From IMG/VR virus record IMGVR_UViG_3300020470_000006, positions 1-56,294 of that record: a DNA stretch of 56,294 bases; one strand, given 5' to 3'. This stretch comes from a virus. Position numbers and translations under genes: made by a program. This document shows, one piece after another, positions 1,566-55,299 of the stretch. Position 1 is the first letter of the stretch; every line of letters begins with the position of its first letter. A model generated the notes under the pieces. That model worked only from the letters and a program-made list of their open reading frames with translations. It was not told where the DNA came from and did not search any database.

Positions 1566-1597
1566 CGAGAACGCAAAATGGAGTATTGTTGAGTCGT

Positions 1598-5303: not shown

Positions 5304-5858
5304 ATGGCTGAAGTAGTAAATATTGTTGCCTCAATGAGATTGACGAATAGTATAGATGTGAATGCAGTTGCAGACGAATTGCATATTGATTATGAACAAG
5401 AACAATTTCCCGGTATGGTTTATCGAGTCGATGAACCGAAAGTATGCCTCCTATTGTTCAGGAGTGGGAAGGCCGTTGCGACAGGGGCTAAAGATGTTGA
5501 TTCAGTTCATGTTGCTTTCAAAAAATTGAGAGAAGATTTGATTAACAATGATTTTGATTTGTGGGCTGAAGAAGATTGCGAAGTTCACCTCCATAATATT
5601 GTAATGACTTCAGATTTATCTGAAATTGTAGCAGGGAAGATTGACCTTTCTAATTTGATGTTATACTTACCTTTCGATAAAACGGAATATGAACCTGAAC
5701 AATTTCCGGGTTTGATTTATCGGTTAGACGACCCTGCCGTTGTTTTCCTTATTTTCTCAAGTGGGCGATGTGTTATCACAGGTGCTAATGAGTTCGATGA
5801 AGCAGAACGGGCTGAAGCCGTATTGAAAAGCGAATTAAATACCTTCTTGAATGATTGA
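5304..5858 (+). CDS. tbp: TATA-binding protein (TBP)
   Basis: The 184-residue protein is a two-fold repeat as in archaeal and eukaryotic TBP. The first half has EQFPGMVYR from residue 33 followed by a strand pair ending RSGKAVATGAK; the second half repeats this 99 residues later as EQFPGLIYR from residue 132, ending SSGRCVITGAN. The P-G-(M/L)-(V/I)-Y-R and G-K/R-x-V-x-T-G-A motifs are diagnostic. TBP binds the TATA box and recruits TFB and RNA polymerase. Length matches normal archaeal TBP. An element-borne copy can change promoter choice, relevant because two TATA-box types are seen here. It has its own TATA box at -30 and overlaps the next gene by eight bases. Confidence 0.95.
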   Translation: MAEVVNIVASMRLTNSIDVNAVADELHIDYEQEQFPGMVYRVDEPKVCLLLFRSGKAVATGAKDVDSVHVAFKKLREDLINNDFDLWAEEDCEVHLHNIVMTSDLSEIVAGKIDLSNLMLYLPFDKTEYEPEQFPGLIYRLDDPAVVFLIFSSGRCVITGANEFDEAERAEAVLKSELNTFLND

Positions 5859-6112: not shown

Positions 6113-7417
6113 GTGGATGATATTTTGCCTGTATCCCCCCGAAAGGTGGGCGGTAGTTTCAATAGTGCGTGGGAAGCAAAGGCTTCAGATTACGAAACGA
6201 GTATTAAGGTAGGTCGCCCTGTCGGTGAAAATAGGAAGGGTAGCGGAATAGATGATATTGTTAATTTATTCGCTGAAAGGTATGATTCTATGAGGAAACT
6301 CATTAGGCAACAATGTGGTTTTAGGGAATCCAATACCATATCTGAAGTATCCAAAGAACGAAGGAATTACAGACAGTATAATGTGATTGGTATAATCTCA
6401 AGTAGGAGGAGGACTAAATCAGGTGGCCTAATGATTGAGATTGAAGATAAAACAGGAACTTTGATGGCTTTTGTTAAGAAAGAAGATTCAGCATCGCAGA
6501 CATTGTTGTGTGATGATGTAGTTGGTCTGAGTGGGTCTTTTGGTAAGGACTCCGATATTTTTTGGGTAGATAGAGTTCAATTTGGAGATATTCTACCTAA
6601 ACATCAGAACAAAGGAGGGGCAGAATATGACCCTGTTTCTATTGCGTTTATTTCTGATATTCACATGGGTTCAAAATATTTCCTTGAACACACATGGGAT
6701 AAGATGATGAAGTGGCTCAATGAGGCTGAACTTGCTAAGAACATCAAGTATCTTGTGATGGCAGGTGATGTGTGTGATGGCATAGGTATTTATCCCGGTC
6801 AAGAAAATAATCTTATTTTTGATAATGCTTACGACCAATATGAGATGTGTGCAAGGAAACTTGATGAATTACCCGACCATATTACACCAATAATTTTGCC
6901 GGGTAATCACGATGCAGTAAGACCTGCACAACCTCAGCCTATGCTTGAGCATACAATTCAACAACAATTCAATTCAGCCATCCATACGGGGAATCCTTGT
7001 AGAGCGCAACTTAGTGGTATTGATTTGCTTGCCTATCATGGGCAGGGGATGGATGATATTATCCCTCAAATCGACCATGTAACTTATGAAAACTCTATCG
7101 AAGGAATGAAAGAAATGTTAAAGAAAAGGCACATGACTCCACAATGGGGTGAAAGAAGTGCTTTATCTCCTGAAGAACAAGATGATATGATTATTAGAGA
7201 ACTCCCTGATGTTTTCGTTACAGGCCATACACATAGTCATGGTTTTGAGTGGTATAGAGGCGTAGCAAATGTTGTTTCATCAACAATGCAAGGTCAGACA
7301 GATTTTATGAATATGCTTGGTTATGCTTCACAGAAGGGACATTTGACTATTTACAATATTCAAAATAGAGAGGCTAAGGTAGTTTCATTCCATGCGAATG
7401 ATGATATTAATTTTTGA
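6113..7417 (+). CDS. polB: DNA polymerase D small subunit (DP1)
   Basis: The 434-residue protein has an OB-fold region (about 90-150) followed by a calcineurin-like phosphoesterase domain: DIHMGS (182-187), GDVCDG (218-223), GNHD (264-267) and GHTH (371-374). The segment GIYPGQE...AYDQYE and PGNHDAVRPAQPQP is specific to PolD small subunits. All metal ligands of the 3'-5' exonuclease are present, so proofreading activity is expected. It is shorter than many cellular DP1 proteins, lacking a long N-terminal part. The large catalytic subunit DP2 is not in the window. GTG 6113 follows GAGGG. The next gene overlaps or abuts it, linking replication to the sugar cassette. Confidence 0.93.
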   Translation: MDDILPVSPRKVGGSFNSAWEAKASDYETSIKVGRPVGENRKGSGIDDIVNLFAERYDSMRKLIRQQCGFRESNTISEVSKERRNYRQYNVIGIISSRRRTKSGGLMIEIEDKTGTLMAFVKKEDSASQTLLCDDVVGLSGSFGKDSDIFWVDRVQFGDILPKHQNKGGAEYDPVSIAFISDIHMGSKYFLEHTWDKMMKWLNEAELAKNIKYLVMAGDVCDGIGIYPGQENNLIFDNAYDQYEMCARKLDELPDHITPIILPGNHDAVRPAQPQPMLEHTIQQQFNSAIHTGNPCRAQLSGIDLLAYHGQGMDDIIPQIDHVTYENSIEGMKEMLKKRHMTPQWGERSALSPEEQDDMIIRELPDVFVTGHTHSHGFEWYRGVANVVSSTMQGQTDFMNMLGYASQKGHLTIYNIQNREAKVVSFHANDDINF

Positions 7418-8465: not shown

Positions 8466-9404
8466 ATGGGTGAGAGGGAGAAGTCGGAAATATTAATGAT
8501 TCTTCAACCAAGAGCAATTCCTGAAGCAATTGACTCCTTGAACAAACTTGATATTGAAAAGGTTTGGTTTAGGGGGTTTGATGAATATAATGTAGTCCAA
8601 AGAATCAATCAATTCATTGAAGAAACAAACTATGATTATTATTGGATTATTGCAGACGATGTAGTAGTGGATGGCAAACCCATAGAACTATTACGGCCTT
8701 TGATGTATGAGGGAGATGTAGTTACAGGATATTGTAGAATGGCTATGGATACTGAGATAACGAATGTCTGTGCTGAACCATTAGTTTATCAGCCTTATCA
8801 CGAATGGGATAAGTGGGAGTTTTTCAATAAGTTGAAACTTCACAGTCCAAAAAAATATGCGTGGATGGATGGTTTGCCTTCACCACACCCCCCTAAGAAC
8901 TCCTCTGAGTGGTGGAGTTATCTATGGTATGATTTTGATAAGTGTTCATTTTTGACGATGGAAGATATTGAAAACAAATCTGAAAGTGTTTTTCAAACTT
9001 ACTTGACGGGGTGGGCATTCACAGGGGCTTCAAGAGATATATGGGTAAAATACCCATTTGAAGTTACATTATTTGGTGGGCAATCTGATGTGCAATTTTC
9101 CCTCAGATATGCACATAGAGATAGCAAAAAAATATATTCACACAAGGATGCTTATTTTACACACTTGAAAAATAGTGTAACAGAAGTATTGACGAAGGAA
9201 TGGTTAGTGGGGGTTGAGCCTCCAATGATATATCGAGGAGAGGGCATCAGATTAAGAGAGCAAATAAGTGAACAGAATATTGTGTGGAATGAAAATGAAG
9301 TGAACTTCTCACCATACGATAAGTTCACAACTATTTTTCCTTATGAGTATAACATCTATGCTGATGAACACAATATGGAGGAGGATGATGATTTTGATTT
9401 CTAA
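8466..9404 (+). CDS. Glycosyltransferase-like protein, copy 1
   Basis: The 312-residue protein starts with EILMILQPRAIPEAIDSL, shared almost exactly by the next two genes. YYWIIADDVVVD carries a D-D-V motif (D64, D65) in the position of the GT-A DxD metal site. QTYLTGWAFTGASRDIW and a later SDVQFSLRYAH with a following HKD resemble the acceptor/metal half of GT-A enzymes. A sugar transfer role is inferred from fold-like features and the sugar-cassette context, not proven. A weak TATA-like TTTGATATA lies 30 nt upstream. First of three tandem paralogs. Confidence 0.65.
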   Translation: MGEREKSEILMILQPRAIPEAIDSLNKLDIEKVWFRGFDEYNVVQRINQFIEETNYDYYWIIADDVVVDGKPIELLRPLMYEGDVVTGYCRMAMDTEITNVCAEPLVYQPYHEWDKWEFFNKLKLHSPKKYAWMDGLPSPHPPKNSSEWWSYLWYDFDKCSFLTMEDIENKSESVFQTYLTGWAFTGASRDIWVKYPFEVTLFGGQSDVQFSLRYAHRDSKKIYSHKDAYFTHLKNSVTEVLTKEWLVGVEPPMIYRGEGIRLREQISEQNIVWNENEVNFSPYDKFTTIFPYEYNIYADEHNMEEDDDFDF

Positions 9405-10257
9405 TGAGAATGAGATTTTAATGATTCTCCAACCGAGAGCCATACCTGAAGCAATTGAATCCTTGAATAAACTTGATATTGAAAAGGTTTGGTTTAGAGG
9501 ATATACGGAGATGGAATTAGAAATTGTTTTGAATGAGTTCATCAAGAATACAGATTATGATTATTATTGGATTATAGCAGATGATGTGGTAGTGGATAAT
9601 CAACCACTTGAAGTATTAAGGCCGAAGTTATATCAAGGTGAGGTCGTTACAGGATACTGTAATTTGTATCAAGGGTCTAATTTTGTTAATCTTAGTTTAA
9701 GCAGAATACCCTATTTATTTCAGGAAAGTGAGGTTCATCATCATTATCAACAAATTAAGCATCAAGGACTTCATTTAGAGGAGAATGTTGATGATGAATA
9801 TGAGGAGTTTTGCTCAAGATTAATCAAAAATAAAGATTATGATTTTTGGAAACATCGACTCCAAGAGTTGCATCTTCACCCTCCTTACTTTATGAGTCAA
9901 GAACAAGTGGATTTTATGGGTGATAAATATTTCCAAACCTATTTTGCAGGGTGGTCTTTTACAGGTATGTCTAAGGAGATTTGGTTAAAATACCCATATC
10001 AATGTTCATTAAAAGGAGGTGGAACTGATGCTCAATTTGCTATGAGGTTTTTTGAAAAAGAACATGAGGGTAAAATATTTACACACAAAGATAGTGGGTT
10101 CTTTCACATAAAGGATGTAAATGCGGCAGAGGGAGGTTTCCTGAAAAGAAATTGGTTAGTGGGAGTGGAAGAACCTTTAGTTCATTTTGGTGAAGGAAAG
10201 GTTTCAAGAGAAGAAGTAGATGAAAAAGATATTTACCTTGTAAATGATTATGAATGA
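9388..10257 (+). CDS. Glycosyltransferase-like protein, copy 2
   Basis: Second tandem paralog (289 residues), with EILMILQPRAIPEAIESL, the IADDVVVD acidic motif (D65, D66), AGWSFTGMSKEIW and TDAQFAMRFF followed by HKD. It overlaps the 3' end of copy 1 by 17 nt. Start is ATG 9385 or 9388; upstream in-frame ATGs lie too far inside copy 1. The middle (about residues 90-180) is quite different from the other copies, so acceptor choice probably differs. Confidence 0.65.
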   Translation: MILISNENEILMILQPRAIPEAIESLNKLDIEKVWFRGYTEMELEIVLNEFIKNTDYDYYWIIADDVVVDNQPLEVLRPKLYQGEVVTGYCNLYQGSNFVNLSLSRIPYLFQESEVHHHYQQIKHQGLHLEENVDDEYEEFCSRLIKNKDYDFWKHRLQELHLHPPYFMSQEQVDFMGDKYFQTYFAGWSFTGMSKEIWLKYPYQCSLKGGGTDAQFAMRFFEKEHEGKIFTHKDSGFFHIKDVNAAEGGFLKRNWLVGVEEPLVHFGEGKVSREEVDEKDIYLVNDYE

Positions 10258-11164
10258 AATTGGAGGATTTTATTTGCCGAATGAAATATTGATGATTCTT
10301 CAACCGAGAGCCATACCTGAAGCAATCGAATCCTTGAATAAACTTGATATTGAAAAGGTTTGGTTTAGGGGATTTAATGAACCTTATTTATGTGAAGTTC
10401 TCAACACATTTATTCAAGAAACTAATTATGATTACTATTGGATTATTGCTGATGATGTAATTGTGTCTGCAAAACCCTTGCACAAATTAAGACCCATAAT
10501 GTATGAGGGTAATGTAGTTACAGGATATTGTAAATGGCATCAAGAATCCCAATATGTTAATATCTTACATACACCCCTCAAGTCATGTTATGGTGCTGAA
10601 CACCCTAACTACCATTTTTGGAAACGATTGAATAATGCCAATAATAGTAGGAATCAATGGGTTAATGATATACCACACCCAAAACCTAATAAGATAGAAG
10701 AACAAAAAAGGTATTTGATTTATGATATTGATATTCCTCAAATGTGTTATTCCTTAGAAGATTTAGAACGCTCACCCACAGATATTATTGAATCTTGTTT
10801 TGGCGGGTGGTCTTTTACAGGGGCATCAAGAGATATATGGCTCAATTATCCTTTCCAATGTAGTATCAAGGGTTGTGAGAGTGATATGAACTTTGCACAT
10901 AGATTCGTCAATGAAGATGGCAACATAATTTTAACTCACAAGGAAGCGGATTTTGAACACCTAAAAAATAACCAATATATTTTAACTAAAGATTGGTTAG
11001 TGGGATTAGAAGCACCTCTAATTTACAAAGGACAAGGAAAAATACAGAGAGAAGATATTGAATTAGATAACATACATTTTGAAGCCTCTGACTTTGAACC
11101 ATCTCTTATTGATTCTGATATTGTTCGTGAAGGTATTCACCATAGCACGATTGAGAGAAATTAA
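10244..11164 (+). CDS. Glycosyltransferase-like protein, copy 3
   Basis: Third tandem paralog (306 residues), with EILMILQPRAIPEAIESL, YYWIIADDVIV, GGWSFTGASRDIW and ESDMNFAHRF followed by HKE. It overlaps copy 2 by 14 nt (start ATG 10244 or 10250). A C-terminal extension (FEPSLIDSDIVREGIHH) is not found in copies 1 or 2. The acidic motif is kept in all three copies, so all may be active. Confidence 0.65.
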   Translation: MIMNEIGGFYLPNEILMILQPRAIPEAIESLNKLDIEKVWFRGFNEPYLCEVLNTFIQETNYDYYWIIADDVIVSAKPLHKLRPIMYEGNVVTGYCKWHQESQYVNILHTPLKSCYGAEHPNYHFWKRLNNANNSRNQWVNDIPHPKPNKIEEQKRYLIYDIDIPQMCYSLEDLERSPTDIIESCFGGWSFTGASRDIWLNYPFQCSIKGCESDMNFAHRFVNEDGNIILTHKEADFEHLKNNQYILTKDWLVGLEAPLIYKGQGKIQREDIELDNIHFEASDFEPSLIDSDIVREGIHHSTIERN

Positions 11165-27889: not shown

Positions 27890-28567
27890 ATGCAAACATA
27901 CCGATACTCATTTAATCCTGAAGGAAAAACTAAGGTAGAAGGAAAATCCTACCTTACAATGACGGGTTATTTTCCAAAAATCGGAAAAAGAAAAACTATT
28001 CCAATCGAACTTTCTGAATATTGGATTAGCGATGAAAACCCTGAAGATACCTATGGGTCGGTAAGAAACATAGGAAGGGTGGTATTACAAGATGCAACAA
28101 GAGATTATCACAGAGAACTGAACCGTAAGGGTCATCAATATGAATATGATTATGGAGATAGAATGTGGGAATGTTTCATCTATATTGAAGGGTATTCTCA
28201 ATTCCAAACATGGACTTTCATTAAGGCTATTATCAAAAAAGGCCGATTTGTAGAACAAACAGGGAGTAAATATATGTTCGACATTGAGAAAATCGTGCAA
28301 AAAGAGAGAGGTGGCGAGGATGAGAATGTTGAGATTAACCATCGAGGGGGCAGAGGATTTAATTACAAAATCAAAACCCAAAGAGAAACCTTAGAAAATA
28401 TTATTGAAGCGGCAGAGAATAGCATTGGGCGGAAAAAATACCAAGTGGTTAAACATGAAATTGAGCCTGAACCTGACCCATACATTGAGGATAAAAAAAG
28501 ATGGCGAATACCTATCATTGGAGGGGCGGTTGCTTTGGCAAGTGCCTTGATTTACCGAAACAAATGA
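27890..28567 (+). CDS. Tail-anchored hypothetical protein (225 aa)
   Basis: A soluble region of about 200 residues with many aromatic and charged residues (YLTMTGYFPKIGKRKT, WTFIKAIIKKGRFVEQ) ends in a C-terminal helix RWRIPIIGGAVALASALIY with a basic RNK end. The layout is like the MFG proteins but without the N-terminal signature and with an ordinary TATA box. Function unknown. Confidence 0.6.
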   Translation: MQTYRYSFNPEGKTKVEGKSYLTMTGYFPKIGKRKTIPIELSEYWISDENPEDTYGSVRNIGRVVLQDATRDYHRELNRKGHQYEYDYGDRMWECFIYIEGYSQFQTWTFIKAIIKKGRFVEQTGSKYMFDIEKIVQKERGGEDENVEINHRGGRGFNYKIKTQRETLENIIEAAENSIGRKKYQVVKHEIEPEPDPYIEDKKRWRIPIIGGAVALASALIYRNK

Positions 28568-34400: not shown

Positions 34401-37400
34401 TAATCCTGAAGAACAAGCCCAATATCTTCCTATGCTATTTTTGAGGTCTGCAAAAAGAAGTAATCCAACAAAGATGGGGTTAGAATTACTCCCACAATCT
34501 GCCTTACCTGTGATTTTTGATGTTCTCATTAATAACCCTTATGGTGAATACTACTATGATTGTGTTTTCGTTCAATATGTTGGACTTACTGATGGCACAG
34601 ATAGAGGATATGGAAGATATGTAAAGAGGTTGAAAAGGGGTAGTATCGCAGACATTTTAATTCGTAACCTAAGCATGGCAACCAATACAAGTAGTGCCTT
34701 CAGAGAAGAGGGAATCAAAGTTAGAAAAGAATTGAGTGAGGAAATGGCTTTTAATATCCTCACGAATATTGATGTGTTGGAAAATATGAGTTCCTTAGAA
34801 TTAATTGCATCTAAATTGCCTAATAGTGAAGATTTATTTTATGTTATGGAAGATATTGTATTGACTCATTATCTTGAGGACTTGTATAATCCTGAAGGCG
34901 ACAAACCCTTTAGAAGTTTGAGTCCTGAAGAGTTTGACGATTTTGAAATCATTAGAACGATAAATGATGGATTGCCTCCGATTAAAGAAATGATTCTCGG
35001 TTTCGCCCACAACCAATATACTCCAAGTGAAATCCTTGAAAGGATTGTGCAAAAGCCACGAATGGATGGAAAAAGTGTAGGGTATAGGAGAATGTTCGAT
35101 TACTATGGTATTAATGGGAACATCCTAAGCGATAGTGAAGAACAATTTGAAGAAACTATCTTGAAACAGATTGCTCAGAATGACGGTGTAAGGGGAAGAT
35201 TACTGAAATACCTATACGATAATTATTCGGCTTTGCATGAATCCCTAATTATGAATCCAAATATTGTTGAGGCTCGATTGTTTGAGAGATTGGCTGAAGC
35301 GTATCCCATTAAAATATTAAACAATAATAGGATAACGAAGAGAGCATATATGAGGCATCTAAGGAAGATGGTTGATACTATCAAATTAACCCCCACAAGT
35401 GAGTTTGACTTGTCTATCTCAGGATTTTGGGATTCGATGAGATATATTCTTGCAGGTAATTACATCAAAAATAATGCAGAAAGATTTATTTCAAAGGTTC
35501 TTGAAGAACCCTACACTCATAACTTCGTGAGAGCAGGGAGGTGTAGATTCGGAACAGGGCTTCCTACTGCCTCTCATAATGAACCTGAAGGTCAAAATCA
35601 ATCCTACACAGGGTCGATTATCGAATATCCTCAACTTCCTATTACGGGGATGATAGAGGGGCGACCATTTACAGATAAGCCATATTTCCTTTATCGAGGA
35701 TTGAATGTGAAAGGGAGGGGTGAATCTCCTAATTTCTTAATAGATGAGGTAGGACAACATTGGTATCTTAGGAAGGGTTTAACCTCAATTTTGAATGAAA
35801 TCAAAGAAATAAACAGAAGTGATAATGCAAATGCGCTTTGTGTTCCTGAATCTACTATTGATGATGAATCAGAATCATCTAATCTGCCAAGTTCGACATC
35901 AATTTATCAAAACAATAATTATGATTACGCCTATGATGGTGTAGGTCTAACATCATTGATGTTTATTCTTGATTCGGTTTATGAGCCTCAAGATGAAGAT
36001 TTTGAAAGGCGGGTAAATGAAAATCCAAGTTTAACTAATTTGAGAAATGCAGGGATTTCTAATAAGGCATATATGAGGGGTATCAATTTGGAAGGTTCTT
36101 CTAATAAAATCAGAGATTATTTGGCAAACAATTTAGCAAGCAGATTAAGAACTCCTATCGAGCGAGAAGCACTTTCTGACTTGATTGATATTTTCCCTGA
36201 TAAAACAAGGTTCTTGTTTAATTCTGAAAATCCAATCAATATCATAGAAATGGTAGATGAAGATGGTGTAAGCGTCATACCGAACATTGAAGAGTTCGAT
36301 AAACCTTCAATAAGGAACTTACTCAGAAAACTTACAGATATGACTTTTGAAAACTTTATTGAGCAGTATGAACGAAATTACCCCTCACTTCTTGTGCAGA
36401 ATATTTTGATGTATAATCTATTGACGGGATACCTTAATCCTTCTCGACTCAGAGCAGGGACAGGTGGATTTCAAATCGTAAATGGAGTATATGATTTAGA
36501 GGAAGTATTTGGGTGGATTCCTCCTGAAGAAAGATTACATATCCGAAATTATGATAGCAACGGTAGGTTCAATGATAGAATGTCTGCCTTCGCAGTAGAT
36601 TTCGTCTTTACCCTAAACGATACAAGGCTTGATAGATTTGTGAATGAGGTGGATGAAACTGAAATAGAAATACCTGAGTGGCGAGTTCAATTAACAAGGG
36701 ATGGAGAAAATGGTTTGTTTAGGATATTTAATGCGATGTATCTAAACCCTAAATTGGATTATAACGATTGGGCAGACATTCTTACGATTTTTACTGATGC
36801 TATTGAAACGGAAGGTTGTGTATTGTTCCCTCTAAGAAATCCTGAAAATCCAAGAAATGCCATAGATACCGTTGATAGACAATGGGATAGGTTCAGCGAA
36901 AATATTTACTGCTATGATTTAGATGGAAGGAGTGGGTTTAGTGATGTGAAATCTATGACTGTGAAAGAAATACAAAAACAATTCGATGAATCCTACCCTT
37001 ACCTCTATTCTATGTTCCTTTTGGGTAATTACACATCTCAGGGATTAAGGCCATACACAATAGAAAGATTTAGGGAAAAATGGGTAGAAAGAAACGGGGC
37101 GAAACAAGATTGGGAAAAATTGATGTGGTCGAATAACATATCCTCTGAAGTGCAAGAAATCGGTAAAGAATTAGTAGATTTATTGATAGGGTTGGATATG
37201 AATGAACATGGGCATCTATATGATGATAATAATGAACCAACTGATGAGGAGTTGGCAAAATACCAAAGGCAGAAGTTTGTATCGACAAGGCGAAGAATAA
37301 ATGAGTTATTCGGAGGAATGGGGCTTTACAGACAATATCTCAGAATACTTACTCCTATTATTCGACAAAGAATGCGAAGAGATGGATATAGAAGTAACCA

Positions 37401-40100: not shown

Positions 40101-40505
40101 TTGAGTCGAGGTGAGCGATACAAGCGTATGGCGAATGATTTGATTTCTCAAGGTTCGCTTATGGAGGGTGAGAATTATGGAACGCATTGGACTTGGGCAA
40201 TCCTTCTTGAAAATGATAAAGTAGTTGTCGTATTAGAGGCAGATGAGAATGACCCCTTTATGAATCTTGAAGAAATCTATTCGTTTGAGAGAGGAAAGGG
40301 TCATGCAAGTAAGGCGATGGCTAAAGTGATTAATTCTGCTGATAGGTGGGAAGTAAATATGGAGTTGGATGTCGAGCCTTTTTCGTATGGTGAAGGTGAT
40401 GAAGAGATATTGGATGGTGTATCTCTTGAAAGATTCTATGAAAGATTTGGATTTACGAAAACTGAAATGGATGGATTATCGTATTTTCATAGATTGGTTG
40501 AATAG
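40101..40505 (+). CDS. GNAT-family acetyltransferase
   Basis: FERGKGHASKAMAKVI is the acetyl-CoA-binding R/Q-x-x-G-x-G/A loop, and ERFYERFGFTKTE the C-terminal motif of the family. 134 residues is normal for the fold. The start is uncertain: TTG 40101 or ATG 40128. A good ribosome site (GAGGAGGGG) lies just before ATG 40090, whose frame closes after six codons, so a frameshift or sequencing error near 40100 may hide the natural start. Substrate unknown. Confidence 0.7.
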   Translation: MSRGERYKRMANDLISQGSLMEGENYGTHWTWAILLENDKVVVVLEADENDPFMNLEEIYSFERGKGHASKAMAKVINSADRWEVNMELDVEPFSYGEGDEEILDGVSLERFYERFGFTKTEMDGLSYFHRLVE

Positions 40506-49035: not shown

Positions 49036-49302
49036 ATGGGTGAAATAGATTCTGAAACTCTTGATGAAGATAAAATAGAAGATAAGGAAATCCCCTCAGA
49101 TGAGTGGGTTGGTATGCCTGAGTTCAATCAACAAAAGAAAGAACCATTCAGTAAAATCATTATTCGATTTGAAACGGCTGAGGATTTGGAGGAGTTTGCC
49201 GAAATGATTGGGCAGAAATTAACGCCTAAGACCAAGAGTATTTGGCATCCTTATCGGCCACATAGGAGTGGAGTTGTGAGGAGATGGGTCGATGAATCCT
49301 GA
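49036..49302 (+). CDS. Conserved phage-type hypothetical protein (88 aa)
   Basis: DEWVGMPEFNQQ, then IIIRFETAEDLEEFAEMIGQ and TKSIWHPYRPH, is a pattern that I recognise from phage and plasmid genes of unknown function, often next to the glycosyltransferase that follows here. It overlaps that gene by 11 nt. A CTAATAAG TATA-like box lies about 31 nt upstream. No activity known. Confidence 0.65.
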   Translation: MGEIDSETLDEDKIEDKEIPSDEWVGMPEFNQQKKEPFSKIIIRFETAEDLEEFAEMIGQKLTPKTKSIWHPYRPHRSGVVRRWVDES

Positions 49303-50194
49303 ATATCCTATCTATGTGGTTTCCAAAGGTCGATGGAAAAGTAGATTGACGGTAAAGGCATTGGAATATATGAAAGTTCCTTATCACCTTATTGTCGAAG
49401 CATCCGAATATGAAGAATATGCTAAGGTTGTGGATGCTGAGAAAATATTGGTTACTCCTGAAAAATACAACAAAGAATATGATGTTTTTTGGGATGATGA
49501 TGACCCACGAATCGGACCCGGTGCGGCAAGGAACTTCGCATGGGAACATTCCATCGAGAGAGGATATGATTGGCATTGGGTCATGGATGATAATTTAGAT
49601 GCCTTCCATAGATTAAATAGAAATACTAAAGCGTTGGTTACGAGTGGGACAATCTTCAAGTGTATGGAAGATTTCGTTCAGAGATATGATAATATCGCCA
49701 TAGCAGGGCCAAATTATTATTCTTTTTGTAAGGCTAATGATGCTCTCCCACCATTCGTGAAAAATACAAGAATATACAGTTGCCTCCTTATCCGAAACGA
49801 TATTCCTTATCGGTGGAGGGGGCGGTATAATGAAGATACAGATTTATCATTAAGGGTTCTCAAAGATGGATGGGCTACTCTCCAATTCAATGCTTTCTTA
49901 CAAGGAAAAGTTACTACTCAGAGAATGAGTGGAGGCAACCATCAACAATTTTACTCTCAAGATGGAACTTACTTGAAATCTAAGATGTTAGAAGATATGC
50001 ACCCTGATGTAGCAAAGGTGGTATGGAGATTCAATAGATGGCATCATCATGTTAATTACAAACCTTTTAAGGAAAATAAATTAGTTAGAAAGAAGGACAT
50101 CGAAATCCCAACAGGTATCAATAATTATGGCCTTCGACTAATTGAAAGTAGTGAATATCCCGCAGATATTAAGGAATGGAGGAGTAAAAAATGA
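49292..50194 (+). CDS. TET-associated-type glycosyltransferase (GT-A fold)
   Basis: The 300-residue protein starts YPIYVVSKGRWKSRLTVKAL, then WDDDDPRIGPGAARNFAWEH, the metal motif MDDN (98-101) and RYNEDTDLSLRVLKDGW (about 178-194). These match the phage family described as TET/JBP-associated glycosyltransferases, proposed to glucosylate hydroxymethylated bases. No TET/JBP oxygenase is in the window, so either it lies outside or the acceptor differs. The last four bases overlap the methyltransferase gene. Confidence 0.8.
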   Translation: MNPEYPIYVVSKGRWKSRLTVKALEYMKVPYHLIVEASEYEEYAKVVDAEKILVTPEKYNKEYDVFWDDDDPRIGPGAARNFAWEHSIERGYDWHWVMDDNLDAFHRLNRNTKALVTSGTIFKCMEDFVQRYDNIAIAGPNYYSFCKANDALPPFVKNTRIYSCLLIRNDIPYRWRGRYNEDTDLSLRVLKDGWATLQFNAFLQGKVTTQRMSGGNHQQFYSQDGTYLKSKMLEDMHPDVAKVVWRFNRWHHHVNYKPFKENKLVRKKDIEIPTGINNYGLRLIESSEYPADIKEWRSKK

Positions 50195-51051
50195 AAACTA
50201 TGAAACCCAAAGAAATAATCAAGATGTTCATTGATGATTATGGTGAGATGTTCGGAATAGACAAGGAACTCGCACTCATTGAGGCACATAATTTAGTAGG
50301 AAAGTGTAATAGAAATAAATATGATGAATCCCTCATAGTTGAAGTAAAACGAATCGAAAAAGAATGGTATGATGCCTTAATGGAGGGCGACCCTGATTAC
50401 TCTTGCTATGATGATGATTACTATTTCATAGATTTGATTACTTGTTTCGTAACTTACAGTCGAAGTTATTTACGGACTATTGAGAATCCTAAATCATACG
50501 ATGGAAATACATCCCTTTTTGAGTTTTTGGGAGAGGTAAATAAGGTGGCCGACTTGGGTTGTGGGATGGGTTATACGAGTGCTTACTTGAAAGAAATATG
50601 GCCTAACTCTGAAGTATATGGAACGAATATTAAAAATACAAAGCAATATCAGTTCTGTGAAAAAGTAAGTTCTGACTATGATTTCTCCATCGTGGAGGAT
50701 ACAACTCAGATTGGTAAAGGGGTGGATTTTGTTTTTGCTTCCGAATATTTTGAACATTTTGAAAATCCAATGGAACACTTAGATAAAGTCATAGAAGATA
50801 TGCAACCTAACTATTTGTTTTTGGCTAATTCCTTCAATACTTATTCTATCGGCCATTTTACTTCATACAAGCATGGAGAGGAAATTATTCCTCAGAAGTT
50901 TATTTCAAGGGCTTTCAATAACCACTTATCTCAGAAGGGTTATCAACAAGTGAAAACAAAGGTATGGAACAATAAACCTGCGTTATGGGTTCGGAATCCC
51001 ACCAATGATGCAAATAGCAAAGTTAATAAGGGTAGCACAACACAGGACTAA
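50191..51051 (+). CDS. SAM-dependent methyltransferase (286 aa)
   Basis: A long N-terminal helical region of about 115 residues precedes the Rossmann motif VADLGCGMGYTSAYL (about 119-133), the acidic strand end VYGTNIK, DFVFASEYFEHFENP (motif IV region) and NYLFLANSFNTYS. No DPPY/NPPY or PC motif is seen, so it is not an obvious DNA adenine or cytosine methylase. Coupling to the glycosyltransferase suggests joint modification of a small molecule, nucleotide or sugar. Confidence 0.78.
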   Translation: MKTMKPKEIIKMFIDDYGEMFGIDKELALIEAHNLVGKCNRNKYDESLIVEVKRIEKEWYDALMEGDPDYSCYDDDYYFIDLITCFVTYSRSYLRTIENPKSYDGNTSLFEFLGEVNKVADLGCGMGYTSAYLKEIWPNSEVYGTNIKNTKQYQFCEKVSSDYDFSIVEDTTQIGKGVDFVFASEYFEHFENPMEHLDKVIEDMQPNYLFLANSFNTYSIGHFTSYKHGEEIIPQKFISRAFNNHLSQKGYQQVKTKVWNNKPALWVRNPTNDANSKVNKGSTTQD

Positions 51052-51330: not shown

Positions 51331-51407
51331 GGGTCTATGGCGCAGTCAGGTAGCGCAACGGGCTTTTAACCCGTTGGTCTTGGGTTCAAATCCCAATAGA
51401 CCCTCCA
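51331..51407 (+). tRNA. tRNA-Lys (anticodon TTT)
   Basis: The 77-nt sequence folds to a complete cloverleaf: acceptor GGGTCTA/TAGACCC, D arm GCGC...GCGC, anticodon stem ACGGG/CCCGT with loop CTTTTAA (anticodon TTT, reads AAA and AAG), T arm TTGGG/CCCAA with GTTCAAATC-like loop, and CCA encoded. The discriminator base is T, unusual for tRNA-Lys. AAA codons are frequent in the window. First of three tRNA genes in 300 bases. Confidence 0.93.
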
Positions 51408-51459: not shown

Positions 51460-51536
51460 GGGGATGTAGTTTAATCAGGAAAAACAACCGTTTGCGGAAC
51501 GGGAAACTGCGGGTTCAAATCCCGCCTTCTCCACCA
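51460..51536 (+). tRNA. tRNA with anticodon GCG (Arg by anticodon; Ala-like acceptor stem)
   Basis: The 77-nt sequence has acceptor GGGGATG/CTTCTCC, a D arm, anticodon stem ACCGT/ACGGG with loop TTGCGGA (anticodon GCG, reads CGC/CGU), T arm GCGGG/CCCGC and encoded CCA. The acceptor stem has G3-T70 wobble, A73 and a T6-T67 mismatch. G3-U70 with A73 is the main identity signal for alanyl-tRNA synthetase, so its charging is uncertain. Stem pairing around the anticodon is weaker (A27/G43). Confidence 0.8.
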
Positions 51537-51552
51537 ACTCTTAAATCAATAT

Positions 51553-51629
51553 GGGCGTATAGTGTAGTTTGGATAGCACATTGGCCTCCTAAGCCGATAA
51601 CAGGGGTTCAAATCCCCTTATGCCCGCCA
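51553..51629 (+). tRNA. tRNA-Arg (anticodon CCT)
   Basis: Complete 77-nt cloverleaf: acceptor GGGCGTA/TATGCCC, D arm GTGT...GCAC, anticodon stem TTGGC/GCCGA with loop CTCCTAA (anticodon CCT, reads AGG), T arm AGGGG/CCCCT, discriminator G and encoded CCA. AGG is a common Arg codon in this window, so the gene probably supports element translation. Its last 22 bases overlap the 3' end of the minus-strand gene. Confidence 0.93.
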
Positions 51630-53421: not shown

Positions 53422-53433
53422 TTTATGTATCAG
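53422..53433 (+). promoter_or_regulatory. Second-class promoter box (TTTATGTATCAG)
   Basis: Begins exactly 30 nt before ATG 53452. An ATG at 53425 lies inside this box, so it cannot be the start if the box is the promoter. Confidence 0.75.
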
Positions 53434-53451
53434 TTTTTCCAAAGTAATTTT

Positions 53452-55299
53452 ATGCCTCAAGGTTGGGACAAGATTTTATTAGGTGGTTTGGGGGCATTAG
53501 TCGCCTTCAAGGGTCTTGACCTATTAACTAAACCTAAATCACGATTTAGTGCGGAAGATTGGAGTGGAAGCCAAGATGATATTCCGATTGCAGTTGATTA
53601 TTTCTGCGCTCTTGAAGTATTGAAAAATAATGGTAAAATGAAACAAGGAAAAAAAGGTCAATACCAACAAGCAGTAAAAATGGTTCAAAATCAAATTACT
53701 CAAGGGGCTTTTCCATTCTTGATATTCAATCGGAAACAAACCGTTTTCTTGATGAATCTTATCAATGATAGGCTAATCCATTACAATGAGAAGTTTCATA
53801 GTGAAGGTAGAAAAAGTGTCGAAAAAATGGTAGAAATGTTGAAGCCACGATTGATGCAAGTATCTTCTAAAGAATTGAATAATTACTTTGCTCAACAAGC
53901 CTTGAAGGTAGAATTGAGAGGATTGCCTCCACTACCGCAAGGAACTACGAACAATGGAGTCCGAGTTAGGTTCGCCCCGAATCCGAATGGCCCACTTAGT
54001 ATGGGACACTCTTTTGGTATCATCGTGAATAATACTTATGCAAACGCATACAATGGAGATTACATTCTTAGATTCGATGATACTGACCCCGACCAAAAAA
54101 GGCCATTAAGAGAATTATATCCTCAAATTATTGAAGAGTTTGAGTTCTTGACTGATAGAACAGAAGATGATTATGAACTTCATATCGCTTCTGAAAATAA
54201 AGAGAGATACATTTCTCTTGCTCGGAAATTGATTGGTGAGGGAAAGGCTTATGTATCATGTATCCCACATAAGATATTTGCAGAAGAATATCAACAATAT
54301 TTGACTCCTGAAGAAATTGCAGAAGGAAAAACACCTCTTCAATCTGCACAAGCAAAATCGAATCCTGATAGAGAAAAATCTATTGAAACTAATTTGAAAC
54401 AATTCGATGAAATGGTAGAAACGGGAAGTTATGTTGCAGAGGATGGCACATTATGTTCTCCAACACAAGGACACTTTATCAAGATAGGACAAGAAGCCAA
54501 AGTTTATGAAGAGGTGGGAACAATAGTTCCTACGGTTTATTTGAAAACTCCATTAGATACAGGAAAATCTAAGTGGAGAGATATTAAAATTATGAGGGCT
54601 ACTGCACGAAGCCACCCTAATGAAACAGGGTTTGTTTGGCCTTATTTGGCGTTTCAAGGTGCTATTGACGACCACGATTTGAGAATCACACACATGATTA
54701 GAGGGTCGGACTTGTGGGAAACCGAAGAAGCCTATCCTTTCATTTGGAATGCTCTTGGGTGGGATTTAAGTGGACTCCCAACTTTCCTATATTGGCCGAG
54801 ATTATTCTTCAAGGACTTTTCAATACCATACACCGATTTGGAAACAGGAGATAAAAAATATTTGAAAGCCATAGGAACATCTAAAATGGCTCTCTTGATT
54901 GCGAACCAACCTGAGTTTCAAGGAAATTGGTGTAATCCTTTGTTCCCAACCGTTTGTTCCTACATGGCTAAAGGGTATCCCGCTTCCTACTTACAGGACT
55001 TTTGGTTAGAGGATGTGTGGGGGCAAACCTTCCCATTCTTTAATGGTGAAAAAATAGCGATGAAGAAAGACGGGAAAGTTGTCGGAGAGATACCTGCACT
55101 CAGCAAAATTATGAGTGAGGCCAAGATTTCAATGAGAGAAGGTGCAGGGAGTTTAGGTGCTAAACCTAATTACAGGAAGAATCAAGCACAAGTTCCTTAT
55201 CCACTTACTAAAGATGGTGGGATGAGAGGTGTGCCGACTATTACACCAAATACGATAAGAGAGTATGAGCCACGACCTATCCCAATGATTCCTGTTTGA
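53452..55299 (+). CDS. Membrane-anchored glutamyl-tRNA-synthetase-like protein
   Basis: The 615-residue protein has an N-terminal membrane helix (ILLGGLGALVAFKGLDLL, about 8-25), a helical region to about 165, and a class I synthetase domain of archaeal GluRS type. It reads RFAPNPNGPLSMGH (R173-H186; HIGH-like), ILRFDDTDP, FQGAIDDHDLRITHMIRGSD and IGTSKM (about 474-479; KMSKS-like). Only about 135 residues follow, shorter than an anticodon-binding domain and ending in a Pro-rich tail. It may charge tRNA, or transfer glutamate or glutamine to something other than translation at a membrane. Co-regulated with the MFG set by its promoter box. Confidence 0.8.
   Translation: MPQGWDKILLGGLGALVAFKGLDLLTKPKSRFSAEDWSGSQDDIPIAVDYFCALEVLKNNGKMKQGKKGQYQQAVKMVQNQITQGAFPFLIFNRKQTVFLMNLINDRLIHYNEKFHSEGRKSVEKMVEMLKPRLMQVSSKELNNYFAQQALKVELRGLPPLPQGTTNNGVRVRFAPNPNGPLSMGHSFGIIVNNTYANAYNGDYILRFDDTDPDQKRPLRELYPQIIEEFEFLTDRTEDDYELHIASENKERYISLARKLIGEGKAYVSCIPHKIFAEEYQQYLTPEEIAEGKTPLQSAQAKSNPDREKSIETNLKQFDEMVETGSYVAEDGTLCSPTQGHFIKIGQEAKVYEEVGTIVPTVYLKTPLDTGKSKWRDIKIMRATARSHPNETGFVWPYLAFQGAIDDHDLRITHMIRGSDLWETEEAYPFIWNALGWDLSGLPTFLYWPRLFFKDFSIPYTDLETGDKKYLKAIGTSKMALLIANQPEFQGNWCNPLFPTVCSYMAKGYPASYLQDFWLEDVWGQTFPFFNGEKIAMKKDGKVVGEIPALSKIMSEAKISMREGAGSLGAKPNYRKNQAQVPYPLTKDGGMRGVPTITPNTIREYEPRPIPMIPV

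What the first reader, a model, noticed from the sequence alone, without database searches (positions are those of the whole stretch)
51460..51536. tRNA with Arg anticodon but alanine identity elements
The anticodon loop reads GCG (Arg codons CGC/CGU), yet the acceptor stem has G3-U70 and A73, which are the dominant recognition elements of alanyl-tRNA synthetase regardless of anticodon. Such a chimera could insert Ala at CGC/CGU codons, compete for host AlaRS, or be a non-translational tRNA. A T6-T67 mismatch further marks it as unusual.
Basis: partly seen in the sequence, partly recalled or inferred. Interest (0 to 1): 0.6.

Follow-up and report, generated by a model that had tools for sequence, protein, structure and literature searches.

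The report
Two-faced viral tRNA, its codons purged
A virus that appears to infect archaea carries a transfer RNA with the recognition marks of both arginine and alanine, yet its genes have almost wholly dropped the two codons this tRNA reads, which is unexpected and makes a link between viral tRNAs and codon avoidance testable.

Summary
In detail: window 51460-51536 is a tRNA-Arg(GCG) with G3-U70, A73 and a U6.U67 mismatch; G2-C71 and G4-C69 complete the acceptor set of alanine tRNAs. G3-U70 also occurs in cellular arginine tRNAs, in four genomes apparently as the only ACG-type gene, so it need not mean alanine.

Two things change the picture. The record looks like an archaeal virus (TATA-binding protein, DNA polymerase D small subunit, TATA-like boxes), where GCG is the normal anticodon. 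And it has almost eliminated CGU/CGC: 7 of 697 arginine codons, in frame only, while CGA/CGG are used freely. A relative (G001) shows the same; a more distant one (G002) does not. None of 13 alignable leftover CGY codons faces arginine or alanine in the relative. So the tRNA is not there for bulk codon supply.

I favour a spare arginine tRNA in cells where CGY decoding is compromised (0.38). The boldest open reading is an Arg/Ala-ambiguous tRNA that corrupts host messages while the purged virus is spared. Host, charging and conservation of the tRNA are unknown.

The parts
51460..51536 (+). tRNA-Arg(GCG) gene with encoded CCA
51462..51462 (+). G3 of the G3.U70 pair (partner T70 at 51530); G2-C71 and G4-C69 flank it
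51533..51533 (+). discriminator A73
51480..51480 (+). A20, main arginine determinant (after G18 G19)
   Evidence: role from PMC9976931 passages
51494..51496 (+). anticodon GCG (C35 = arginine determinant); reads CGC/CGU
51465..51465 (+). T6, mismatched to T67 at 51527; a second mismatch is A27 (51487) to G43 (51503)
51331..51407 (+). tRNA-Lys(UUU), discriminator T73 (51404)
51553..51629 (+). tRNA-Arg(CCU), G73; reads AGG (189 codons in the window)
5304..5858 (+). TATA-binding protein, marks an archaeal virus
   Evidence: PF00352 E 2e-45; PDB TBPs
6113..7417 (+). DNA polymerase D small subunit-like protein (DP1); holds one leftover CGC codon (6215-6217; G001 has AAA, Lys)
   Evidence: PF04042 E 3.5e-16; 89% and 60% identical in G001 and G002
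1595..1597 (+). leftover CGT codon; G001 has CAC (His)
10769..10771 (+). leftover CGC codon; G001 has GAG (Glu)
11126..11128 (+). leftover CGT codon; G001 has ACT (Thr)
28124..28126 (+). leftover CGT codon, not in the aligned set
34663..34665 (+). leftover CGT codon, not in the aligned set
40125..40127 (+). leftover CGT codon just before an in-frame ATG, so it may lie outside the gene

Best explanation
It is an intact virus-encoded arginine tRNA whose acceptor stem has drifted into alanine identity, carried by an archaeal virus whose lineage has purged the two codons it reads. Shown: the two overlapping identity sets, the CGY purge in two related viruses, its absence in a more distant relative, and the archaeal gene content. 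Inferred: in infected cells CGU/CGC decoding is compromised, for example because a host defence destroys or blocks the host tRNA-Arg(GCG); the virus answered by recoding nearly all CGY arginines (now mostly AGA/AGG) and by keeping a divergent spare tRNA-Arg(GCG) for the few that remain. With so few cognate codons, selection on acceptor fidelity is weak and G3-U70 with A73 is tolerated.
For: A20, C35 and A73 are all present. The expected tRNA landmarks are kept: T8, A14, G18G19, A21, G53-C61, the T loop and CCA (landmark roles from general knowledge). CGT 5 and CGC 2 of 697 Arg codons in 51 ORFs, but 25+85 and 42+69 in the other two frames, so the avoidance is at codon level. G001: 9 of 381; G002: 205 of 604. 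CGT and CGC are the two outliers, about 17-fold down against G002 in the window, the next codon 2.6-fold. In G002, 42 aligned CGY codons face window R 20 times, written AGR 17 and CGR 3. Among 61 other viral loci with a tRNA-Arg(GCG), CGY/CGN is never below 0.41. Cellular Arg tRNAs with G3-U70 exist. Viral tRNAs that evade tRNA-targeting defences are published (PMC10264068 and PMC11555353, start of abstracts in the search listings).
Against: No defence system or tRNA cleavage was seen. The host is unknown, so the avoidance could be the host's own habit. A working spare tRNA would remove the need for a purge. The two mismatches and poor predicted fold leave open that it works badly. That no leftover CGY codon (0 of 13) faces Arg in the relative is odd if CGY simply means Arg.
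Confidence: 0.38

Rival explanations
1. Ambiguous missense tRNA: it is charged partly with alanine and puts Ala at CGU/CGC codons of host messages, weakening the host, while the virus is spared because it has almost no such codons.
For: The only one of 730 distinct non-Ala viral tRNAs with G2-C71, G3-U70, G4-C69 and A73 together. It explains both oddities at once: the tRNA and the purge coincide in 1 of 62 viral GCG loci. A C70-to-T change making G3-U70 in a yeast tRNA-Pro with intact anticodon gives 3.1% Pro-to-Ala (PMC8473984, passages). A G3-U70 tRNA reassigned CUU/CUA to Ala in Ashbya mitochondria (PMC3874161, passages).
Against: A20 and C35 should favour ArgRS. Cellular G3-U70/A73 tRNA-Arg genes exist, in four genomes apparently as the only ACG gene, though those lack G2-C71. 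It is not known whether purged G001 has this tRNA. No Ala faces a leftover CGY (0 of 13).
Confidence: 0.24
2. Host-matched codon bias and a passenger tRNA: the host itself nearly lacks CGU/CGC, the virus follows, and the tRNA is a host-derived passenger drifting under relaxed selection.
For: Mismatches at 6-67 and 27-43 and a poor predicted fold. Archaeal tRNA-Arg usually have G3-C70, one transition from G3-U70 (13 of 16 Asgard GCG tRNAs called were G-C and 2 were G-T).
Against: Twelve Asgard stretches have CGY/CGN 0.38 to 0.75, and the lowest value among the genome-contig loci is 0.20 on 5 codons; the window has 0.04 (51 ORFs) to 0.07 (automatic set). Tertiary landmarks and CCA are intact. 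But the true host was not found.
Confidence: 0.25
3. Codon change in progress: CGU/CGC no longer mean arginine in this lineage and are being captured by another amino acid through this tRNA.
For: 0 of 13 leftover CGY codons face Arg against about 70% for other Arg codons (chance about 1.6e-7 if CGY sites were like other Arg sites); in a substitution-matrix test His, Gln, Lys, Glu, Asn and Asp all fit better than Arg. Published early-stage reassignments of CGA/CGG likewise show very rare codons (PMC8629427, section 11).
Against: Only 13 sites, in more variable stretches than average (0.54 against 0.65 local identity). The 4 His matches are CAY against CGY, one A-to-G step at the second base, as recent mutations would give. 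Alanine fits worse than arginine. Arg identity is complete.
Confidence: 0.1

Closest known systems
tRNA-Arg(GCG) of archaea
   Same: Anticodon, A20, C35 and a GGG-starting acceptor stem; G3-T70 in 2 of 16 Asgard GCG tRNAs called.
   Different: Both Asgard G3-T70 cases have G73, not A73; and none comes from a genome shown to avoid CGY.
Spontaneous mistranslating tRNA-Pro with G3:U70 in yeast (PMC8473984, passages)
   Same: A non-alanine tRNA with intact anticodon made partly alanine-accepting by C70 to T.
   Different: A laboratory suppressor in a cell, measured at 3.1%; here natural, viral, Arg-reading, charging unmeasured.
Ashbya mitochondrial tRNA(UAG), CUU/CUA read as Ala (PMC3874161, passages)
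   Same: G3-U70 placed on a tRNA for codons of another amino acid.
   Different: There the tRNA is not a substrate of the ThrRS tested and Ala was shown by mass spectrometry; here Arg identity is complete and the codons are nearly gone.
CGA/CGG reassignments in bacteria (PMC8629427, section 11 and passages)
   Same: Arginine codons made very rare, with tRNAs of changed identity.
   Different: Those are CGA/CGG in low-GC bacteria; the paper's discussion contrasts CGG with CGC, which would have to change together with CGU. Here CGU/CGC are lost while CGA/CGG stay common at 38% GC.
Phage tRNAs that evade tRNA-targeting defence (PMC10264068, PMC11555353; start of abstracts only)
   Same: Viral tRNA of a kind not explained by codon supply.
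   Different: No defence nuclease known here; the virus looks archaeal; the purge of the cognate codons is additional.

Membership tests
tRNA-Arg | A20 in the D loop | tested here: met
   A20 at 51480; 52 of 52 distinct viral Arg(GCG) tRNAs have it, 3 of 31 Ala
tRNA-Arg | C35 with an arginine anticodon | tested here: met
   GCG anticodon; the review prints U/C36 for the main set and G36 or U36 for yeast; G36 here, as in any CGN reader
tRNA-Arg | A73 or G73 | tested here: met
   A73
tRNA-Arg | charged with arginine by ArgRS | not testable with these tools
   needs enzyme assay
tRNA-Ala (identity elements) | G3.U70 and A73 | tested here: met
tRNA-Ala (identity elements) | G2-C71 and G4-C69 | tested here: met
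   set as printed for bacteria in PMC9976931
tRNA-Ala (identity elements) | G20 | tested here: not met
   A20; 16 of 31 viral Ala tRNAs have G20
tRNA-Ala (identity elements) | alanine anticodon NGC | tested here: not met
   GCG
Codon-supply viral tRNA | cognate codons well used by the virus | tested here: not met
   7 CGY of 15,212 codons; CGY/CGN 0.41 or more in 61 other GCG-bearing loci
Sense-codon reassignment | leftover codons sit at conserved positions of the new amino acid | tested here: inconclusive
   13 sites: H 4, K 3, E 3, Q 1, T 1, G 1; none R, none A
Defence-evading viral tRNA | host nuclease that spares the viral tRNA | not tested
   host not identified
Archaeal virus | archaeal information-processing genes and promoters | tested here: met
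   TBP, PolD small subunit, TATA-like box in 12 of 51 upstream regions, 9 of them at -25 to -30, 1.0 expected (motif chosen after looking). Host not shown directly.

The most novel reading that the evidence does not exclude
A virus uses the genetic code as a weapon and a shield: it makes a tRNA that can be charged with both arginine and alanine, so that host CGU/CGC codons are misread during infection, and has removed those codons from its own genes so that only the host is harmed. It would be a natural counterpart of laboratory code-swap firewalls (recalled, not looked up) and a code disturbance specific to CGU/CGC.
Probability: 0.22. Interest if true: 0.92.

Novelty: new variant of a known kind. 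Interest (0 to 1): 0.63.

Why it matters
What viral tRNAs are for is a long-standing question; codon supply is the usual answer. Here is a tRNA that cannot be explained by bulk supply, in a virus lineage that has dropped exactly its two codons while keeping CGA and CGG. That separates supply from other functions and gives a clean assay: one transcript, two synthetases. If the tRNA is ambiguous, it would be a natural code-based barrier between virus and host; if it is a spare, it points to an undescribed archaeal attack on arginine tRNA. Either way, avoidance of a codon pair is a marker that can be searched for in other viral genomes.

Tried and rejected
Sequencing error or chance tRNA: not fully excluded (no reads), but the gene keeps the tertiary landmarks and scores 61 bits. 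DNA-motif avoidance (restriction, base modification by the TAGT system): rejected, off-frame CGT/CGC are common. AT-rich mutational bias: rejected, CGA/CGG and the C-ending codons of other boxes remain. CGY = Ala: disfavoured. 'Host tRNA-Arg normally has G3-U70': true of some cellular lineages such as SAR86, not general; the host is unknown. His as the meaning of CGY: best fit, but HisRS needs a G-1 element (PMC3874161, passage) and CAY to CGY is one transition, so I read these as recent mutations.

Led nowhere: viral scans with the GluRS-like protein, with P0002 and with the DP1 alignment gave no confirmed relatives; the close relative G001 ends before the tRNA region, so conservation of the tRNA could not be tested; a TBP search in phages found only three records of haloviruses at 34-36% identity, and in 99 Asgard genomes at most about 43% over most of the protein, so the host is open. 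Literature; no paper seen there reports CGU/CGC loss in a virus, but most listed papers were not read.

Count caveats: the 51-ORF set was picked by me from the mechanical list (66 ORFs); the automatic set of 54 ORFs gives 13 CGY of 732 because it includes more doubtful ORFs; both are extreme. In one search loci with fewer than 60 Arg codons were dropped (141 kept), 13 of 74 loci with fewer than 20 CGN codons were dropped. In some searches I used bases 1-40000 of 40,599 of G002. The Asgard pattern demands a CTGCG loop, matched 20 of 59 genomes and would not match this tRNA itself.

Full report
What is there. The tRNA is at the stated coordinates with the stated features: anticodon GCG, G3-U70, A73, U6.U67. 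It also has G2-C71, G4-C69, an A27.G43 mismatch, A20 and an encoded CCA. It is the middle one of three tRNA genes (Lys UUU, Arg GCG, Arg CCU). By free energy alone it folds poorly (z -0.28) compared with its neighbours (-3.51, -1.66).

How unusual. I collected viral contigs by relatives of the neighbouring glycosyltransferase and by two tRNA-Arg(GCG) patterns, and called tRNAs in all of them (939 calls; 761 distinct). G3-T70 marks Ala (30 of 31) and is otherwise rare (9 of 730). Of 52 distinct Arg(GCG) only this one has it. The combination G2-C71, G3-T70, G4-C69, A73 is found in 15 of 31 Ala and in this one of 730 others. The Arg(GCG) set has A73 by the design of the pattern. But A20, not imposed by the pattern, is in all 52 and in 3 of 31 Ala. 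So the tRNA carries a full arginine set (A20, C35, A73) and a full alanine acceptor set, lacking G20. The sets are as printed in the review PMC9976931 (passages).

G3-U70 is not proof of alanine. In 25 of them ARAGORN calls an ACG or GCG Arg tRNA with G3-T70: SAR86 bacteria, Halanaerobium, Baileyella, a Heimdallarchaeote and others; 19 have G73 and 6 have A73. In four of the genomes with A73 (G006, G007, G009, G010) the pattern search found this gene as the only ACG/GCG candidate, so it presumably serves arginine there. Those six lack G2-C71. In Asgard archaea, 13 of 16 called GCG tRNAs have G3-C70, 2 have G3-T70 (both G73), and one ill-folded call is A-T.

What carries it. The record is classed as a virus of 56,294 bases. 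It encodes a TATA-binding protein (PF00352, E 2e-45), a DNA polymerase D small subunit-like protein, a ribonucleotide reductase closest in the PDB to a B12-dependent enzyme and an archaeal-type GluRS-like protein. TATA-like boxes precede 12 of 51 ORFs, 9 of them at -25 to -30, where 1.0 is expected. These point to an archaeal host, for which GCG is the usual CGY-reading anticodon (general knowledge; seen in the Asgard genomes).

The codons it reads are nearly gone. In 51 ORFs (15,212 codons) there are CGT 5, CGC 2, CGA 142, CGG 35, AGA 324, AGG 189. In the two other frames of the same genes CGT and CGC occur 110 and 111 times. If CGN codons split like the least T/C-rich four-fold box (43% T or C, Gly), 7 or fewer of 184 has a chance of 2e-34. 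The other two tRNAs read common codons (AAA/AAG 938, AGG 189). Of 61 other viral loci with a tRNA-Arg(GCG) and at least 20 CGN codons, none has CGY/CGN below 0.41 (13 of 74 dropped). Twelve Asgard stretches have 0.38 to 0.75.

Relatives. A TBP search found two relatives. G001 (34.5 kb) is syntenic with window 87 to about 32,600 (TBP 85%, DP1 88%). It uses CGY 9 times in 381 Arg codons. G002 (TBP 55%, DP1 59%) uses it 205 times in 604. Against G002 the shares of CGT and CGC have fallen about 17-fold each in the window and 18- and 9-fold in G001; the next codon has fallen 2.6-fold. Where G002 has CGY (42 aligned sites) the window has arginine 20 times, as AGR 17 and CGR 3. So in G002 CGY behaves as Arg, and the window writes those arginines otherwise. 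No tRNA was found in the G001 or G002 records, but G001 ends before the tRNA region and both are fragments.

The leftovers. Of 13 CGY codons of the window (4) and G001 (9) that can be aligned between them, none faces Arg: His 4, Lys 3, Glu 3, Gln, Thr, Gly one each. Other Arg codons face Arg about 70% of the time. The sites lie in more variable stretches than average (0.54 against 0.65 local identity). A substitution-matrix score favours His, Gln, Lys, Glu, Asn and Asp over Arg, and Arg over Ala. I read them as short-lived mutations at variable positions. A changed meaning is not excluded; alanine is disfavoured.

Mechanism. Supply of CGY codons cannot be the main reason for the gene. Two facts that are rare on their own, an alanine-like acceptor and a purge of the cognate codons, meet in one genome; among the 62 viral GCG loci with enough codons it is the only one of either kind. 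Either the purge came first (CGY decoding is compromised in the cell, the virus recoded and keeps a spare, and the acceptor drifted), or the ambiguous tRNA came first and the purge protects the virus. Published work bears on both halves: viral tRNAs that evade tRNA-cutting defences (PMC10264068, PMC11555353; start of abstracts), and alanine charging of tRNAs given G3-U70 (PMC8473984 and PMC3874161; passages). I put the first slightly ahead because the arginine set is complete and cellular G3-U70 arginine tRNAs exist. Charging, host and conservation were not testable here.

Relation to known codes. PMC8629427 (passages and section 11) reports CGA/CGG reassignments in low-GC bacteria at very low codon frequency, and contrasts CGG with CGC, which would have to change together with CGU. 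The present pattern is the reverse: CGU/CGC lost, CGA/CGG kept, at 38% GC.

Noticed in passing
53425-55299: Archaeal-type GluRS/GlnRS-like catalytic domain (PF00749 E 2.7e-29; best PDB match 3aii) inside a 624-aa protein whose N-terminal part of about 130-170 residues is unmatched and looks membrane-anchored, with SMGH where HIGH is expected (by eye). Its substrate is unknown; it lies about 1.8 kb after the tRNA cluster.
   Followed up: partly
51331-51407: The tRNA-Lys(UUU) has T73; 45 of 46 distinct viral tRNA-Lys here have A73.
   Followed up: no
L210 707-782 and L284 4427-4502 (minus strand): Two Gracilibacteria MAGs carry a tRNA(UCG) with G2-C71, G3-U70, G4-C69 and A73 but T at position 20 (no A20), next to a normal tRNA-Arg(GCG), in loci where CGN codons are nearly absent (0 of 18 and 4 of 50 Arg codons). 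Possible capture of CGA/CGG by alanine; published predictions for CGG in this group are Trp or Arg.
   Followed up: partly
L181, L187, L206, L247, L248, L256, L265, L286, L290, L294: SAR86 bacteria share one identical tRNA-Arg(ACG) with G3-U70 and G73: a natural conserved exception to the rule that G3-U70 means alanine.
   Followed up: partly
49292-51051: TET-associated glycosyltransferase (TAGT) followed by a methyltransferase, suggesting hypermodified DNA in an archaeal virus; at least 598 relatives in viral contigs.
   Followed up: no
8466-11164: Three tandem paralogous genes of unknown function, each 42-80% alike to three copies in G001, with no PHROG or Pfam match.
   Followed up: no
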